Positions 5,056 to 24,484 of a DNA stretch of 45,312 nt are shown piece after piece. Numbering within the stretch: the stretch's first letter is position 1; every line of letters begins with the position of its first letter. This DNA is from Microcaldota archaeon (GTDB lineage Archaea; Micrarchaeota; Micrarchaeia; Micrarchaeales; CABMGC01). The position numbers and the translations under genes were made by a program. Where the stretch lies: the NCBI GenBank assembly GCA_021812185.1, contig JAKAON010000003.1:1-45312 (forward strand), read 5' to 3'. The notes beneath the pieces are model-generated. The model worked only from the letters and a program-made list of their open reading frames with translations, was not told the DNA's origin and made no database searches.

Positions 5056-5160
5056 TGGGCCCGGTGAGATTTGAACTCACGACATCTGGCTGTCCTATCT
5101 GGAGATTCTTGAAAACCAGATTATAAGACCAGCGCTCTGACCAGGCTGAGCTACGAGCCC
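5056..5160 (-). tRNA. tRNA-Ile (anticodon UAU) with a 30-nt intron at 37/38 (intron 5092-5121)
   Basis: Reverse complement folds as GGGCTCG-TA-GCTC..GAGC-G-CTGGT-CTTATA[intron ATCTGGTTTTCAAGAATCTCCAGATAGGAC]A-GCCAG-ATGTC-GTGAG-TTCAAAT-CTCAC-CGGGCCC-A. Intron junctions form a canonical BHB: central helix CTTA/TAGG, 3-nt bulges TAA and ACA, intron helix TCTGG/CCAGA. Confidence 0.93.
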
Positions 5161-5236
5161 CTGTTATTATTGCATGCCTTTAAGCTTTTATAGATAATGA
5201 GGCTTAAATTATTATCTATTTGTCAAAAGGATTTGC

Positions 5237-6544
5237 ATGGACTTAGGAGAGGGTTTAAGGAAGGCAATCGCCAAGCTTAGGGGAGCAACGATTATAGACA
5301 CCAAGACGATAAAAGAATTCAACAAGGAGCTCCAGAAGGTGCTCATAAGCTCCGATGTCGAAGTTAGCCTTGTACTTGCCTTGACTAAAAAGATAGAGGA
5401 TAGCGTATTGCATAAGGACCTGCCGCACGGGATCAGCCCGAGAGATTATGTTATAGACTTGTTATACGAGCAATTGGTCGGGTTGATGGGAGGCAGCTAC
5501 TCTCCTAGCATGCAGCCGAAAAGAATACTGCTCCTTGGGATATATGGATCTGGAAAGACCACAACCGCAGCAAAGATAGCCAAATATTATCAGGATAGGG
5601 GACTTAGCAGCGCACTTATATGCTGCGATACTGCAAGGCCCGCAGCCTATGAGCAACTTGAGACTTTGGCAAAACAGGCAAATGTGACGTTCTTCGGGAT
5701 AAAGGGAGAGAAGGACGTGGGGAGGATATTGCGCGAAGCCGACGTTGCACTCAAAGGAAAAAAAGTTGTCATATGCGATTCTAGCGGCAGAAGCGGGCTT
5801 GATGAAGAGCTGATCAGCGAACTTAAGATAATATCTAAGAGCTTCAAGCCTGATGAGAAGATGCTTGTGATAAACGCGGATATAGGTCAGGTAGCTGCAA
5901 AGCAAGCGCGTGAATTTGACAATGCTATAAAGATAAATGGAGTTATCGTAACAAAACTTGACGGTTCAGGCAGGGGAGGAGGGGCATTAAGTGCGGTAAA
6001 TGCGGCTAACGTAAACATAACATTCATAGGTAATGGGGAAAGGCTCAATGCAATAGAACTTTACGACTCGAAAAAATTTGTTGGTAGATTATTGGGAATG
6101 CCAGACCTAGAGAGCCTGATAGAGAGAGTAAACCAGGCAGTGAGCGAGTCCGGAGTGAGCAAGGAGGATATTTCTGCAATGAACGAGCTCACATTTGAGA
6201 CTTTCTACGCCCAGCTCAAGACGATGTCGAACATGGGCCCGATGAAGAATATGTTGGGCATGCTAGGAGTCTCTGATGCACCTAAGGACATCGTAGAAAA
6301 GAGCGAAGAAAAAATGAAAAAGTATAAGGTAATAATAGGGTCTATGACCAAGCAGGAGAGAAAAGACGGAAGTTTGCTTAAAGAGAGTGGTAGGGTGAAC
6401 AGGATAGCTAAGGGTAGCGGAACAAGTGAAAAAGACGTGAGAGAACTGCTTGCCGACTTTAATAAGATGAAAAAGATGATGGACAAGTTCCAAAATGACA
6501 GGGATTTCAAGAGGAGGTTGTCAAAATTTATGCCAGGAGCTTAA
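5237..6544 (+). CDS. srp54: Signal recognition particle 54 kDa protein (SRP54/Ffh GTPase)
   Basis: 435 aa; NG domain (GIYGSGKTTTAAKIAKYY, DTARPAAYEQL, TKLDGSGRGGGALSA) and M domain (GPMKNMLGML...ESGRVNRIAKGSGTSEKDVRELL). Confidence 0.97.
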   Translation: MDLGEGLRKAIAKLRGATIIDTKTIKEFNKELQKVLISSDVEVSLVLALTKKIEDSVLHKDLPHGISPRDYVIDLLYEQLVGLMGGSYSPSMQPKRILLLGIYGSGKTTTAAKIAKYYQDRGLSSALICCDTARPAAYEQLETLAKQANVTFFGIKGEKDVGRILREADVALKGKKVVICDSSGRSGLDEELISELKIISKSFKPDEKMLVINADIGQVAAKQAREFDNAIKINGVIVTKLDGSGRGGGALSAVNAANVNITFIGNGERLNAIELYDSKKFVGRLLGMPDLESLIERVNQAVSESGVSKEDISAMNELTFETFYAQLKTMSNMGPMKNMLGMLGVSDAPKDIVEKSEEKMKKYKVIIGSMTKQERKDGSLLKESGRVNRIAKGSGTSEKDVRELLADFNKMKKMMDKFQNDRDFKRRLSKFMPGA

Positions 6545-19141: not shown

Positions 19142-21058
19142 ATGGATGGTTTAAAAGATGCGGAAGAGTACAACGCATCGAAAATCATAGTGCTTGAAGG
19201 CCCCCAGGGGATAAGGAAGAGGCCTGCAATGTATATAGGTTCGACAGGATCCTATGGGGTGCTCCATTTACTCTACGAGGCTTTTGACAATGCGGTTGAT
19301 GAAGGCATTGCAGGCTACTGTAAAAATATAACAGTACACCTGACAAGCACAGATACCGGAGATGTTGCGGAAGTAACAGACGATGGAAGAGGGATACCAG
19401 TAGACATAATGCCAAAGCAAAACAAGCCGGCTTTAGAAGTAATAATGACTTCTTTGCATTCTGGAGGAAAATTCAACAACGACGCTTACAAGACATCTGG
19501 AGGGCTTCACGGGGTTGGTTTGACAGTAATAAATGCGCTTTCAGAGAATACAGAGGTAACGGTAAAAAAGAACGGATTTTTGTACAAACAAACCTTCAGC
19601 AAAGGCGCAGTTACATCGGAACTTGAAAGGATAGGTGAAACTACAGAGCACGGAACAACAATAAAATTCAAGCCGGATCCTGAAATATTCAACGTCTGCT
19701 CTTTCGAATCATCATCGATAAAAGACAGGATGAAATACACTAGTTTTTTGAACAAGGGACTGCGGCTTAAATTCATAGATGATAGATTTGGGACTCATGA
19801 AGAAGTCGATTATTATTCAGACAAGGGAATTATAGATTATCTAGAATACCTGAACCTAGAAAAAACCACCATAACTGAAAAAATGTATATGAAAAAGGAA
19901 GTTGAAGGGACAATTGTTGAAATAGCGCTGCAATACAATGCCACTTACGATGAGCGCCTCTCGTCTTTTGTAAATAATATACAGACAATGGAAGGAGGAG
20001 CGCACGTAATAGGTTTCCATTCTGCACTTACACGCGCAATACTTAATTACACTGGAAAGGGGAGGAATGATAAAAAAGATATTAAACCGACTGGGGAGGA
20101 TGTTAGAGAGGGACTTACAGTAATTATAAATATACTTATGCAAAATCCAGAGTTTGAAGGGCAAACCAAGGAAAAACTAGGAAGCACTAAAATAAAGAGC
20201 ATTGTTGAGACGGCAGCATACGCCTGGCTATCTAGATATCTTGAAGAACATCCTTCAGATGCGCGTGCGATATGGGACAAAGTAACCAATGCAGCTATGG
20301 CGAGAGAGAGTGCACGTAAGGCAAAGGAACTTGTGAGGAGAAAAAACGCTTTTGAAACTACAATATTGCCAGGAAAACTTTCTGATTGCACTGAAGAGGA
20401 TCCGGAAAGAGCGGAGATGTTTCTTGTTGAAGGACAGAGCGCAGGTGGATCAAGTAAGCAAGCAAGGGATAAAAAATATCAAGCCATACTACCGTTAAGA
20501 GGAAAAATATTGAATGTCGAAAAAGCCAATGATGACAAAATATTCCAAAATGAGGAAATAAGGAACATGATAACTGCGATAGGCGCAGGGGTAAGGGAGA
20601 GTTTTGATCCTGATAAGGTCAGATACAAAAAAATTATAATAATGAGCGATGCTGACGTTGACGGAAGCCATATTGCAACATTGATACTCACTTTCTTTTA
20701 CAGATTCATGAAGAAGGCTATAGAAAGAGGCTACATATATGTCGCACTCCCGCCACTTTACAAGGTCACTAAAGGTAAAGAGATAAGATATGCATATAAC
20801 GACGCTGAATTGGAAAATTTGATAAAGGAATTAGGCAACAAAGTCGGAATCCAAAGATACAAGGGTCTTGGAGAGATGAATCCCGAACAACTTTGGGAAA
20901 CTACAATGGACCCTGCAAGGAGGGTGCTCAAGAGAGTAAACATAAAGGATGCTGAAAGGGTCGAAAAACTCTTTGTTGTACTTATGGGGGTGAATGTTGC
21001 AGATAGAAAGAGGTTCTTGGAAGAGCATTCACATGAAGTGAAGTTCCTAGATATATAG
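19142..21058 (+). CDS. gyrB: DNA gyrase subunit B
   Basis: 638 aa; IRKRPAMYIGSTG, HEVVDNAVDE-type YEAFDNAVDEG, TDDGRGIPVDI, SGGLHGVG, LVEGQSAGGSSKQARDKKYQAILPLRGKILNVEKA, MSDADVDGSHI, QRYKGLGEMNPEQLWETTMDP. Confidence 0.98.
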   Translation: MDGLKDAEEYNASKIIVLEGPQGIRKRPAMYIGSTGSYGVLHLLYEAFDNAVDEGIAGYCKNITVHLTSTDTGDVAEVTDDGRGIPVDIMPKQNKPALEVIMTSLHSGGKFNNDAYKTSGGLHGVGLTVINALSENTEVTVKKNGFLYKQTFSKGAVTSELERIGETTEHGTTIKFKPDPEIFNVCSFESSSIKDRMKYTSFLNKGLRLKFIDDRFGTHEEVDYYSDKGIIDYLEYLNLEKTTITEKMYMKKEVEGTIVEIALQYNATYDERLSSFVNNIQTMEGGAHVIGFHSALTRAILNYTGKGRNDKKDIKPTGEDVREGLTVIINILMQNPEFEGQTKEKLGSTKIKSIVETAAYAWLSRYLEEHPSDARAIWDKVTNAAMARESARKAKELVRRKNAFETTILPGKLSDCTEEDPERAEMFLVEGQSAGGSSKQARDKKYQAILPLRGKILNVEKANDDKIFQNEEIRNMITAIGAGVRESFDPDKVRYKKIIIMSDADVDGSHIATLILTFFYRFMKKAIERGYIYVALPPLYKVTKGKEIRYAYNDAELENLIKELGNKVGIQRYKGLGEMNPEQLWETTMDPARRVLKRVNIKDAERVEKLFVVLMGVNVADRKRFLEEHSHEVKFLDI

Positions 21059-21066
21059 TTGGTTTG

Positions 21067-23502
21067 ATGGACAAGATATTCGAGACACCATTGGAAGAAG
21101 AACTTCAGACCAGTTATGTTGATTATGCAATGAGTGTCATTATTGGAAGGGCTATCCCAGATGCGAGGGACGGACTTAAACCCGTCCAAAGAAGGATATT
21201 ATACGGGATGTATAATCTTAGCAATACGCACGACCAGCCTACGAAAAAGAGTGCAAGGATAGTTGGAGAAGTTATGGGTAAATTGCACCCTCACGGAGAT
21301 ATGGCGATATATGATGCACTTGTGAGGATGGCACAGCCTTTCTCCCTCAACCACACTTTTGTAGAAGGACAGGGAAATTTCGGTTCTGTAGATGGAGATC
21401 CACCTGCACATATGAGATACACTGAAGTGCGCCTTACCAAGATAGCCGAAAACATGTTGGATGACCTTGAAAAAGACACTGTAAATTTCCTGCCTAATTT
21501 TGACAATACAGAAAAGGAACCAGCTATACTTCCGGCAATGATACCTAATTTATTAGTGAATGGGGCTTCGGGGATAGCAGTCGGTGTAGCAACCAGCATG
21601 CCACCGCATAATTTAGGGGAAGTGTGTGACGGGATAATAAAGATGTTAGAAAATGGAGACGTCACATCTGATGAAATGACAAACATCATCAAAGGGCCAG
21701 ATTTCCCGACAGGAGGCACTGTGATGATGTCCACCAACGCATATAATGGATATAAATATGGCAGGGGACAGGTCACGATAAAAGCTACAATAGAAGTAGA
21801 TGCTAAAAAGAATAGATTGACAATTACAGAGATACCTTACAACTCCAACAAATCCTCAATAATTGAAAATATAGCGCAATTAGTCAGGGATAAAAAATTA
21901 GTTGGGATATCTGATTTGCGTGATGAGAGCGACAAAGAAGGCATATCGATAGTTGTAGATCTTAAGAAGGACGTAAATCCAGACAGTGTTATAAATGGAC
22001 TTTATAAGCACACTCAGCTTGAAGTTACGTTCCCAATAATAAATCTTGCAGTGGTCGGAAATAATCTAAGGACTTTCAACGTCCTTCAATTACTTAAGAC
22101 ATTTCTTGATCATAGGAGAGACGTTATAAGGAAAAGGAGCACGTTCGAACTTAATGTTGCGAAAGATAGGCTTCATATCGTAGAAGGATTGCGTATAACG
22201 ATAGATAAAATAGAGGAAGTAGTAAAGCTCATTAGGAATAGCGATGAGGCAAAGGGCGCAAGAGAGGCGTTGATGAGAACATATACGCTTAGTGAAAAGC
22301 AAGCGAATGCAATACTGGACATGAAGCTTTCCAAACTCACCCATCTTGAGGCAGAAACGCTTGATAAAGAAGGTTTGGAACTTAAAACCAAGATAATACA
22401 CTTTACAGGGATATTACAAGACCCGAAGAAAGTAGATGATATAATAAAAGTAGAAACACTTGCGATAAAGAAAGCGTACGCAAGGGATAGAGTAACAAAA
22501 ATCATTAAAGGCGAGGACAGCGAAGATATTCTGGAAGAAGATATGATAAGCAATGAAATGGAGACCATAATACTTACGAGTTTAGGATACGTAAAAAGAC
22601 TTGATCCAAGCAATTATAAGGAACAGGGCAGGGGCGGAAGGGGAGTTATAGTAATCAATCTTAAAGAGAAGGATTTTGTAAAACAGATACTTACTGGATT
22701 CACCAAAGATTATTTGATATGTATATCTGACAAGGGGCAGGCATACTGGCTGAAAATATACAAGATACCTGAAGGGAGCAGATACGCAGAAGGGAAGGCG
22801 ATAGTTAACCTACTCGACATAAAAGATGAAAAAATAATAACGCTTTTTGGAATAAAAGATTTCCAGCACTCGCAGCTATTATTCATGACTAAGAAAGGGC
22901 TTATAAAGAAAGTGCACGCGAGCTTGTTTTCCAAGCCGAGATCAAATGGTATACGTGCAATAACCATAAACAAAGACGACGAGGTAGTGAATGCCACCAC
23001 TTACACTAACGACAAATATGTGCTGATATTTACCAAGAAAGGCAAGGCGATAAAATTCGAGGAATCTGACCTTAGATTCATAGGTAGGACGGCAATGGGA
23101 GTACGCGGAATAAGGTTGAAAAACGGAGATGTCGCAGAAGGAATAATAGCGGGAGATAATGCAGGGTATGTGCTCACGGTTACTGAAAGAGGATTTGGAA
23201 AGCTTACAGATATAGGCAAATATAGGTTGCAAAGGAGAGGAGGCGGAGGTATAATAAACGTAAAAATAAGCGATAAAACAGGGGATGTTGCAAAAGTTTT
23301 GTTCATACCTGGAGGGAGTTTGGAGAATAAGAACGCTGTTCTTGTAAATTCGCAAGGTGTTGCTATAACCATACCCCTTAACTCAGTTAGGATAACAGGA
23401 AGGGCTGCAAAAGGAGTACATCTTATGAAGCTTGAATCAGGGGCCAGAATAGTTGATGTGAGGATTATAGACAAATTAGATGCAGCAGAACATGTTTTGT
23501 AG
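21067..23502 (+). CDS. gyrA: DNA gyrase subunit A
   Basis: SYVDYAMSVIIGRAIPDARDGLKPVQRRILYGM, MAQPFSLNHTFVEGQGNFGSVDGDPPAHMRYTE, GyrA-box-like QGRGGRG and beta-pinwheel-type CTD repeats. Confidence 0.97.
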   Translation: MDKIFETPLEEELQTSYVDYAMSVIIGRAIPDARDGLKPVQRRILYGMYNLSNTHDQPTKKSARIVGEVMGKLHPHGDMAIYDALVRMAQPFSLNHTFVEGQGNFGSVDGDPPAHMRYTEVRLTKIAENMLDDLEKDTVNFLPNFDNTEKEPAILPAMIPNLLVNGASGIAVGVATSMPPHNLGEVCDGIIKMLENGDVTSDEMTNIIKGPDFPTGGTVMMSTNAYNGYKYGRGQVTIKATIEVDAKKNRLTITEIPYNSNKSSIIENIAQLVRDKKLVGISDLRDESDKEGISIVVDLKKDVNPDSVINGLYKHTQLEVTFPIINLAVVGNNLRTFNVLQLLKTFLDHRRDVIRKRSTFELNVAKDRLHIVEGLRITIDKIEEVVKLIRNSDEAKGAREALMRTYTLSEKQANAILDMKLSKLTHLEAETLDKEGLELKTKIIHFTGILQDPKKVDDIIKVETLAIKKAYARDRVTKIIKGEDSEDILEEDMISNEMETIILTSLGYVKRLDPSNYKEQGRGGRGVIVINLKEKDFVKQILTGFTKDYLICISDKGQAYWLKIYKIPEGSRYAEGKAIVNLLDIKDEKIITLFGIKDFQHSQLLFMTKKGLIKKVHASLFSKPRSNGIRAITINKDDEVVNATTYTNDKYVLIFTKKGKAIKFEESDLRFIGRTAMGVRGIRLKNGDVAEGIIAGDNAGYVLTVTERGFGKLTDIGKYRLQRRGGGGIINVKISDKTGDVAKVLFIPGGSLENKNAVLVNSQGVAITIPLNSVRITGRAAKGVHLMKLESGARIVDVRIIDKLDAAEHVL

Positions 23503-24409: not shown

Positions 24410-24484
24410 AGCGAGGTAGGGTAGCCTGGAGTGCCCGCCGGGCTCATAACCCGGAGATCGGAGGTCCAAATCCTCCTCTCGCTA
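24410..24484 (+). tRNA. Initiator tRNA-Met (anticodon CAU)
   Basis: AGCGAGG-TA-GGGT..GCCC-G-CCGGG-CTCATAA-CCCGG-AGATC-GGAGG-TCCAAAT-CCTCC-TCTCGCT-A; A1:U72 and three G:C pairs in the anticodon stem are initiator hallmarks. Confidence 0.95.

What the first reader, a model, noticed from the sequence alone, without database searches (positions are those of the whole stretch)
5056..5160. Intron-containing tRNA-Ile with a UAU anticodon, implying direct decoding of AUA
Seen: the minus strand folds into a complete tRNA only when a 30-nt intron (5092-5121) is removed. The junctions form a textbook hBHBh' motif (CTTA/TAGG central helix, 3-nt bulges TAA and ACA, TCTGG/CCAGA intron helix), giving anticodon UAU and A73. 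Known: most archaea read AUA with a CAU-anticodon tRNA-Ile2 carrying agmatidine made by TiaS; a genomic UAU anticodon has been described in only a few lineages (e.g. Nanoarchaeum, Korarchaeum). Genes in this window use ATA heavily, so this tRNA would be a major decoder. Inference: the genome may lack tiaS and the CAU Ile2 tRNA, and would need an alternative way to avoid AUG misreading.
Basis: partly seen in the sequence, partly recalled or inferred. Interest (0 to 1): 0.66.

Follow-up and report, generated by a model that had tools for sequence, protein, structure and literature searches.

The report
Isoleucine tRNA reading AUA directly
The window holds a real, intron-containing isoleucine tRNA with anticodon UAU in a tiny (Micrarchaeota) archaeon; its whole phylum appears to have dropped the usual archaeal AUA-reading enzyme TiaS and to read AUA, here the commonest isoleucine codon, with this tRNA, by a means of sparing AUG that is not yet known.

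Summary
Confirmed. The minus strand at 5160-5056 is a 75-nt tRNA-Ile(UAU) with a 30-nt intron (5121-5092) at the canonical 37/38 site and a strict bulge-helix-bulge. The organism is a Micrarchaeota archaeon (order of Ca. Micrarchaeum). The complete Micrarchaeum A_DKE genome has Ile(GAU), Ile(UAU), initiator and elongator Met, and no third CAU tRNA was found. AUA makes up 74% of Ile codons in the window. [quoted passage not shown] New here, as far as I could search: (a) the loss is phylum-wide; (b) the window's order also lacks Elp3 (0/10 genomes, against 8/8 in other families), and TruA/Pus1 is absent in all 18 tested; (c) outside this order the intron carries a conserved element that pairs with the D-arm, putting the anticodon in a T-arm-like hairpin ending in ACA, which suggests intron-directed pseudouridine at U34. 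The window's lineage has lost it. How AUG misreading is avoided is inference.

The parts
5056..5160 (-). tRNA-Ile(UAU) gene, intron-containing, 105 nt, no encoded CCA
   Evidence: Rfam RF00005 58 bits; parse and fold
5122..5160 (-). 5' exon, positions 1-37
5123..5125 (-). anticodon U34-A35-U36 (reads AUA)
   Evidence: sequence CTTATA at the exon end, unchanged in all parsed orthologues
5092..5121 (-). 30-nt intron at the canonical 37/38 site, strict BHB: CUUA/UAGG, bulges UAA and ACA, UCUGG/CCAGA
   Evidence: 12 of 100,000 shuffles match both helices
5056..5091 (-). 3' exon, positions 38-73 (A73)
5186..5192 (-). TATAAAA, 26-32 nt upstream of the tRNA 5' end: probable archaeal TATA box
   Evidence: read from sequence printed; position is right for a TATA box, function not tested
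5237..6544 (+). divergent neighbour: SRP54 (signal recognition particle GTPase); the UAU tRNA also lies just upstream of SRP54 in several other genera (e.g. contigs of L069, L070, L074)
   Evidence: contig coordinates compared
24410..24484 (+). initiator tRNA-Met(CAU), the only CAU tRNA found in this genome (A1-U72, three G-C pairs below the anticodon loop)

Best explanation
This is the AUA-decoding tRNA of the cell. It is transcribed from its own TATA box, the intron is cut out at the bulge-helix-bulge by the tRNA splicing endonuclease, the halves are ligated, the tRNA is charged by IleRS (UAU and A73), and U34 pairs directly with the A of AUA. It replaces the usual archaeal system of tRNA-Ile2(CAU) with agmatidine made by TiaS, which the phylum lacks. 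Shown here: gene, intron, anticodon, Ile-like body, loss of TiaS, no third CAU tRNA found in two good relative genomes, AUA as main Ile codon. Inferred: splicing, charging, decoding. AUG avoidance in this order, inferred: no Elp3 for cm5/cnm5U34 and no TruA/Pus1 relative for Psi34, so I think it most likely (about 0.5) that U34 carries no modification of those two kinds, and that discrimination rests on competition by elongator Met tRNA (C34) and/or on the ribosome, as reported for Mycoplasma mobile. A different U34 modification (2-thiolation, or pseudouridine by Cbf5/Pus10) is the main alternative. The confidence given is for the decoding claim, not for the AUG part.
For: Gene and intron. TiaS (PF08489): 0 in own genome, 0/79 in family, 0/301 in phylum over 126 genera with 96 genomes of at least 90% completeness; the four archaeal controls ring in 17 and 26, and one genome of the Diapherotrites-type phylum rings at 5e-32, so the model sees TiaS in such genomes. 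UAU tRNA phylum-wide: exact pattern in 101/301 genomes and a relaxed pattern in 33 of 51 genomes chosen among the rest, at least 134 in all, with no hit to the reversed control pattern. tRNA lists of A_DKE (complete) and G017 (97%): Ile(GAU), Ile(UAU), iMet, intron-bearing eMet, no other CAU (27, 31). Elp3 (TIGR01211) 0/10 in the order against 8/8 outside. TruA (PF01416) 0/18 (47). ATA 74% of Ile codons in the window, 60-86% in SRP54 genes of most relatives checked. ARMAN-2 endonuclease cleaves the orthologous pre-tRNA in vitro (PMC12397907).
Against: No RNA or protein data. The own genome is 88.5% complete and its elongator Met tRNA was not found. Absence of Elp3 and TruA rests on profile searches; other U34 enzymes (thiolases, Cbf5, Pus10, an unknown one) were not tested. 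A haloarchaeal Ile tRNA mutated to UAU bound AUG as well (Mandal 2014, as reviewed in PMC7694415), so unmodified U34 would be risky unless the ribosome or tRNA compensates.
Confidence: 0.9

Rival explanations
1. U34 of this tRNA becomes pseudouridine (the eukaryotic PsiAPsi solution), made by Cbf5 or Pus10 rather than a Pus1 relative. In the other Micrarchaeota families the intron would direct this by folding with the 5' exon into a T-arm-like hairpin; in the window's order the reaction would need no intron, or be lost.
For: Outside the order 43 of 43 loci have an intron and most share an element: 12 pairs with the D-arm and anticodon-stem strand, 87-88% of cells paired against 34-51% when slid; ACA or ATA right after the hairpin in 32 of 39 unique sequences; loop UUAUAY with U33-U34-N-N-A37 matching U54-U55-N-N-A58 of a T-loop. 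Archaeal Cbf5 without a guide modifies T-arm-like stem-loops (PMC6138745). Yeast Pus1 makes Psi34/Psi36 only in intron-bearing pre-tRNA-Ile(UAU) (PMC4090602).
Against: The window's intron and those of its order do not have the element: 49% paired in register against 38-51% slid, no ACA at that place. 18 of 84 loci of the order are intronless. No Psi data in any of these archaea; presence of Cbf5 and Pus10 not checked.
Confidence: 0.25
2. U34 is modified at carbon 5 by Elp3 (cm5U, cnm5U), as in euryarchaea.
For: Elp3 is present in 8 of 8 tested genomes of other Micrarchaeota families, so it is possible there.
Against: 0 of 10 genomes of the window's order have Elp3, the complete A_DKE genome among them. 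cnm5U in a UAU Ile tRNA did not prevent AUG binding (reviewed in PMC7694415).
Confidence: 0.05
3. The standard archaeal system (TiaS plus tRNA-Ile2(CAU)) exists and was missed through incompleteness, divergence or tRNA disruption; the UAU tRNA is an extra.
For: Genome 88.5% complete; several of its tRNAs are broken by introns at odd positions, so a disrupted CAU tRNA could be overlooked.
Against: TiaS 0/301 genomes while the model finds it in controls and in one genome of the Diapherotrites-type phylum. No third CAU tRNA among hits down to E of about 1 in A_DKE or 10 in the own genome.
Confidence: 0.03
4. The tRNA is a pseudogene or serves a virus or mobile element.
For: None found.
Against: Perfect stems, UAU conserved in at least 134 genomes of 301, same place beside SRP54 in several genera, core housekeeping genes around it.
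Confidence: 0.01

Closest known systems
tRNA-Ile(UAU) of Ca. Micrarchaeum acidiphilum ARMAN-2 (PMC12397907 and the older work it cites)
   Same: Same tRNA, anticodon and a BHB intron; cleaved in vitro by the organism's own epsilon-2 endonuclease; same order
   Different: Another species; that paper is about splicing and, in the passages I read, does not discuss AUA decoding or TiaS
tRNA-Ile(UAU) of Nanoarchaeum equitans and Korarchaeum cryptofilum (PMC8450103, PMC6000648)
   Same: Genomic UAU in place of tRNA-Ile2(CAU); the Korarchaeum gene also has an intron
   Different: Those were reported as single-species gains; here it is general in a phylum, and AUA is the main Ile codon
tRNA-Ile2(CAU) with agmatidine made by TiaS (most archaea)
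   Same: Same job: reading AUA as Ile
   Different: No TiaS, no CAU Ile2 tRNA found, direct U-A pairing
Mycoplasma mobile tRNA-Ile(UAU) with unmodified U34 (Taniguchi 2013; content from memory, cited in PMC11938285)
   Same: UAU in place of a modified C34 after loss of the modifying enzyme
   Different: Bacterium, lost TilS not TiaS; there the ribosome was shown to spare AUG, here nothing is measured
Yeast tRNA-Ile(UAU) with intron-dependent Psi34/Psi36 by Pus1 (PMC4090602)
   Same: UAU anticodon and an intron at 37/38
   Different: No Pus1/TruA-type enzyme found here; intron dispensable in this order

Membership tests
Archaeal tRNA-Ile(UAU) ('Ile3') | Complete cloverleaf with UAU at 34-36 | tested here: met
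Archaeal tRNA-Ile(UAU) ('Ile3') | Isoleucine-type body | tested here: met
   A73; 61/75 to own Ile(GAU), 55/75 to elongator Met, 42/75 to initiator Met; by similarity only, and Lys(CUU) scores 57/75, so the margin is modest
Archaeal tRNA-Ile(UAU) ('Ile3') | Takes the place of TiaS plus tRNA-Ile2(CAU) | tested here: met
   own genome alone inconclusive for the tRNA, complete A_DKE clear
Archaeal tRNA-Ile(UAU) ('Ile3') | Charged with Ile and reads AUA | not testable with these tools
   needs RNA or protein work
Archaeal BHB intron | Two 3-nt bulges separated by a 4-bp helix, at 37/38 | tested here: met
Agmatidine (TiaS) system | TiaS gene | tested here: not met
   0/301 genomes of the phylum
Agmatidine (TiaS) system | tRNA-Ile2 with CAU | tested here: not met
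   A_DKE and G017 lists
Intron-dependent PsiAPsi (yeast Pus1 type) | Pus1/TruA-family enzyme | tested here: not met
   PF01416 0/18 genomes, 12 of 14 controls ring
Intron-dependent PsiAPsi (yeast Pus1 type) | Intron always present | tested here: not met
   18 of 84 loci of the order are intronless
Elp3-dependent cm5U/cnm5U34 | Elp3 gene | tested here: not met
   0/10 genomes of the order, 8/8 outside
Box H/ACA guide RNA (for the hairpin in sister families) | Large internal loop that pairs with a target | tested here: not met
   internal loop only 3+1 nt; no Rfam H/ACA match in three loci with an intron outside the order

The most novel reading that the evidence does not exclude
In most Micrarchaeota outside the window's order, the intron of tRNA-Ile(UAU) is a built-in modification signal: it pairs with the D-arm to make a T-arm look-alike with U34 in the place of U55 and ACA in the place of CCA, so that Cbf5 (or Pus10) makes Psi34 before splicing. 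This would be an archaeal, independently evolved counterpart of the eukaryotic intron-dependent Psi34. The window's order has since lost the element and Elp3, leaving a tRNA that reads the commonest Ile codon with a U34 that no enzyme identified here would modify.
Probability: 0.27. Interest if true: 0.85.

Novelty: new member of a known kind. Interest (0 to 1): 0.58.

Why it matters
Archaea are thought to avoid a UAU anticodon because it also binds AUG. A whole phylum that uses it for its commonest Ile codon, and an order within it that also lacks the two best-known U34 solutions, is a natural test of that rule; one member with a complete genome (Micrarchaeum A_DKE) is at hand. The conserved intron element in the sister families would, if functional, be a rare case of a tRNA intron kept because it directs modification of its own anticodon.

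Tried and rejected
ARAGORN alone: misses the gene in default mode and misnames several intron-bearing tRNAs. Intron-dependent Psi34 for the window's own tRNA: rejected as a requirement, because close relatives have the same tRNA without an intron. Classical H/ACA guide reading of the sister-family element: rejected, internal loop too small and no Rfam match. That the element is a general property of introns in these genomes: 14 other intron-bearing tRNAs reach 2-8 of 12 pairs and none has ACA at that place, though only three of these, all tRNA-Cys, come from genomes that carry the element. Mandal 2014, Taniguchi 2013, Suzuki and Numata 2014 and Fujishima 2011 were not in the library, so their content is from reviews held or from memory.

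Full report
Observation. The minus strand at 5160-5056 reads GGGCTCG TA GCTC AGCCTGGTCA GAGC G CTGGT CTTATA|intron|A GCCAG ATGTC GTGAG TTCAAAT CTCAC CGGGCCC A. Rfam's tRNA model matches it end to end with 58 bits. Removing 30 nt (5121-5092) leaves a 75-nt cloverleaf, -28.3 kcal/mol. The splice motif is CUUA/UAGG between two 3-nt bulges, followed by UCUGG/CCAGA; 12 of 100,000 shuffled introns keep both helices. Any cut within the bulges leaves 34-36 as UAU. A TATAAAA lies 26-32 nt upstream (sequence).

Organism. SRP54 relatives place the window in Micrarchaeota, near Ca. Micrarchaeum (A_DKE, complete genome NZ_CP060530.1, locus L094). The genome held is 921 kb, 78 contigs, 88.5% complete.

The usual system is missing. 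The TiaS profile PF08489 finds nothing in this genome, in 79 genomes of the family (27 genera) or in 301 genomes of the phylum (126 genera, 96 genomes at least 90% complete). The four archaeal control genomes ring in both larger searches. In the phylum of a Diapherotrites archaeon it is found in 1 of 87 genomes, at 5e-32, so the profile works on such genomes and the loss may be wider than Micrarchaeota. Among the tRNAs of A_DKE and of G017 (97% complete, three contigs) the CAU tRNAs are an initiator and an intron-bearing elongator Met only; both genomes have Ile(GAU) and Ile(UAU) (five 86-nt hits of G017 and two of A_DKE, taken to be Leu/Ser tRNAs by their length, and one weak G017 hit were not read). 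In the window's own genome only the initiator was found (24410-24484); the elongator Met was not, so its CAU list is incomplete.

The UAU tRNA is general. BLAST with the gene finds orthologues with CUUAUA in 68 of 79 family genomes by my count. An exact 31-nt pattern that includes U34-A35-U36 finds 101 of 301 genomes of the phylum, and a relaxed one 33 of 51 further genomes chosen to cover families without a hit; the reversed pattern finds none. In several genera it sits just upstream of SRP54 as here (contig coordinates). AUA is the main isoleucine codon: 875 of 1187 in 43 window ORFs, 64 per 1000 codons, and 60-86% of Ile codons in the SRP54 genes of most relatives checked.

How AUG is spared. 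Elp3 (TIGR01211) is absent from 10 of 10 tested genomes of the window's order, A_DKE included, and present in 8 of 8 genomes of other families; since the order is one clade this is probably one loss. TruA/Pus1 (PF01416) is absent from all 18. So neither the Elp3 route nor a Pus1 homologue is available in this order. By analogy with Mycoplasma mobile (from memory) I favour a U34 without those modifications, with competition by elongator Met tRNA and perhaps the ribosome doing the discrimination; thiolation and Cbf5/Pus10 were not testable with the searches left. This step is inference at about even odds.

An unexpected element. In the order, introns are short, variable, and missing in 18 of 84 loci (some genomes are represented by two loci). 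Outside the order all 43 loci read have an intron, and it begins with a conserved stretch, roughly YGRCNCGYUCURRY-ACA, straight after CUUAUA. These bases can pair with the 5' exon (about G18 to G26, and 30-32), giving 9+3 base pairs around a loop UUAUAY and ending in ACA or AUA (32 of 39 unique sequences). Paired cells are 88% in register and 34-51% at shifts of 1-3; on 33 aligned sequences 87% against 36-50%, covariation score 0.230 against 0.176 (sd 0.010) in shuffles, 0/500 shuffles as high. With one sequence per family the native pairing beats random re-pairing in all but 0.2% of trials. Changes in the D-loop are matched in the intron (e.g. UUAGAG/CUCUAA, UCAGAG/UUCUGA, GGCAGAG/CUCUGCC, GUAGAG/UUCUAC). 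The structure was read from these same sequences, which flatters it against the shifts; the re-pairing test is less exposed to this. Introns of the window's order show no such signal (49% in register, 38-51% slid), nor do 14 other intron-bearing tRNAs, three of which are from element-bearing genomes. The hairpin resembles a T-arm on its acceptor stem: 12 pairs, U34 as second loop base like U55, A37 like A58, ACA like CCA. Archaeal Cbf5 acts without guide on T-arm-like stem-loops (PMC6138745). Hence the novel case: intron-directed Psi34, lost in the window's order.

Known or new. An archaeal UAU Ile tRNA is known from Nanoarchaeum and Korarchaeum (PMC8450103, PMC6000648; [quoted passage not shown] The window's gene is therefore a new member of a known kind. 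I found no paper stating the phylum-wide loss of TiaS, the loss of Elp3 in this order or the intron element, but the library holds open-licence papers only.

Noticed in passing
L224-L246, L254-L274 (tRNA-Ile(UAU) loci outside the window's order; L247-L253 are in it): Conserved intron element pairing with the D-arm, ending in ACA or AUA 14 nt after A37; many of these tRNAs also have a second intron in the T-loop.
   Followed up: partly
L211 (A_DKE) and L195 (G017), elongator tRNA-Met introns: Both introns contain AUUAUGAGU, complementary to ACUCAUAAU of the spliced anticodon loop, near box-C-like GAUGA/GCGAUGA: a possible intron-encoded C/D guide for the Met anticodon loop.
   Followed up: no
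L031, L033, L034, L035, L037 (own genome): tRNA fragments broken in the T-loop or D-arm (Arg-UCU, Ala-GGC, Ala-UGC, Leu-UAA): introns at odd positions, split genes or stray 3' pieces; A_DKE has a Leu tRNA with a T-loop intron (L204).
   Followed up: no
L284 (G387:C4:4125-4466): The only TiaS match (5e-32) among 87 genomes of a Diapherotrites-type phylum; a gain, a relic or contamination.
   Followed up: no
window 19142-23502: Adjacent gyrB and gyrA genes (DNA gyrase) in an archaeon.
   Followed up: no
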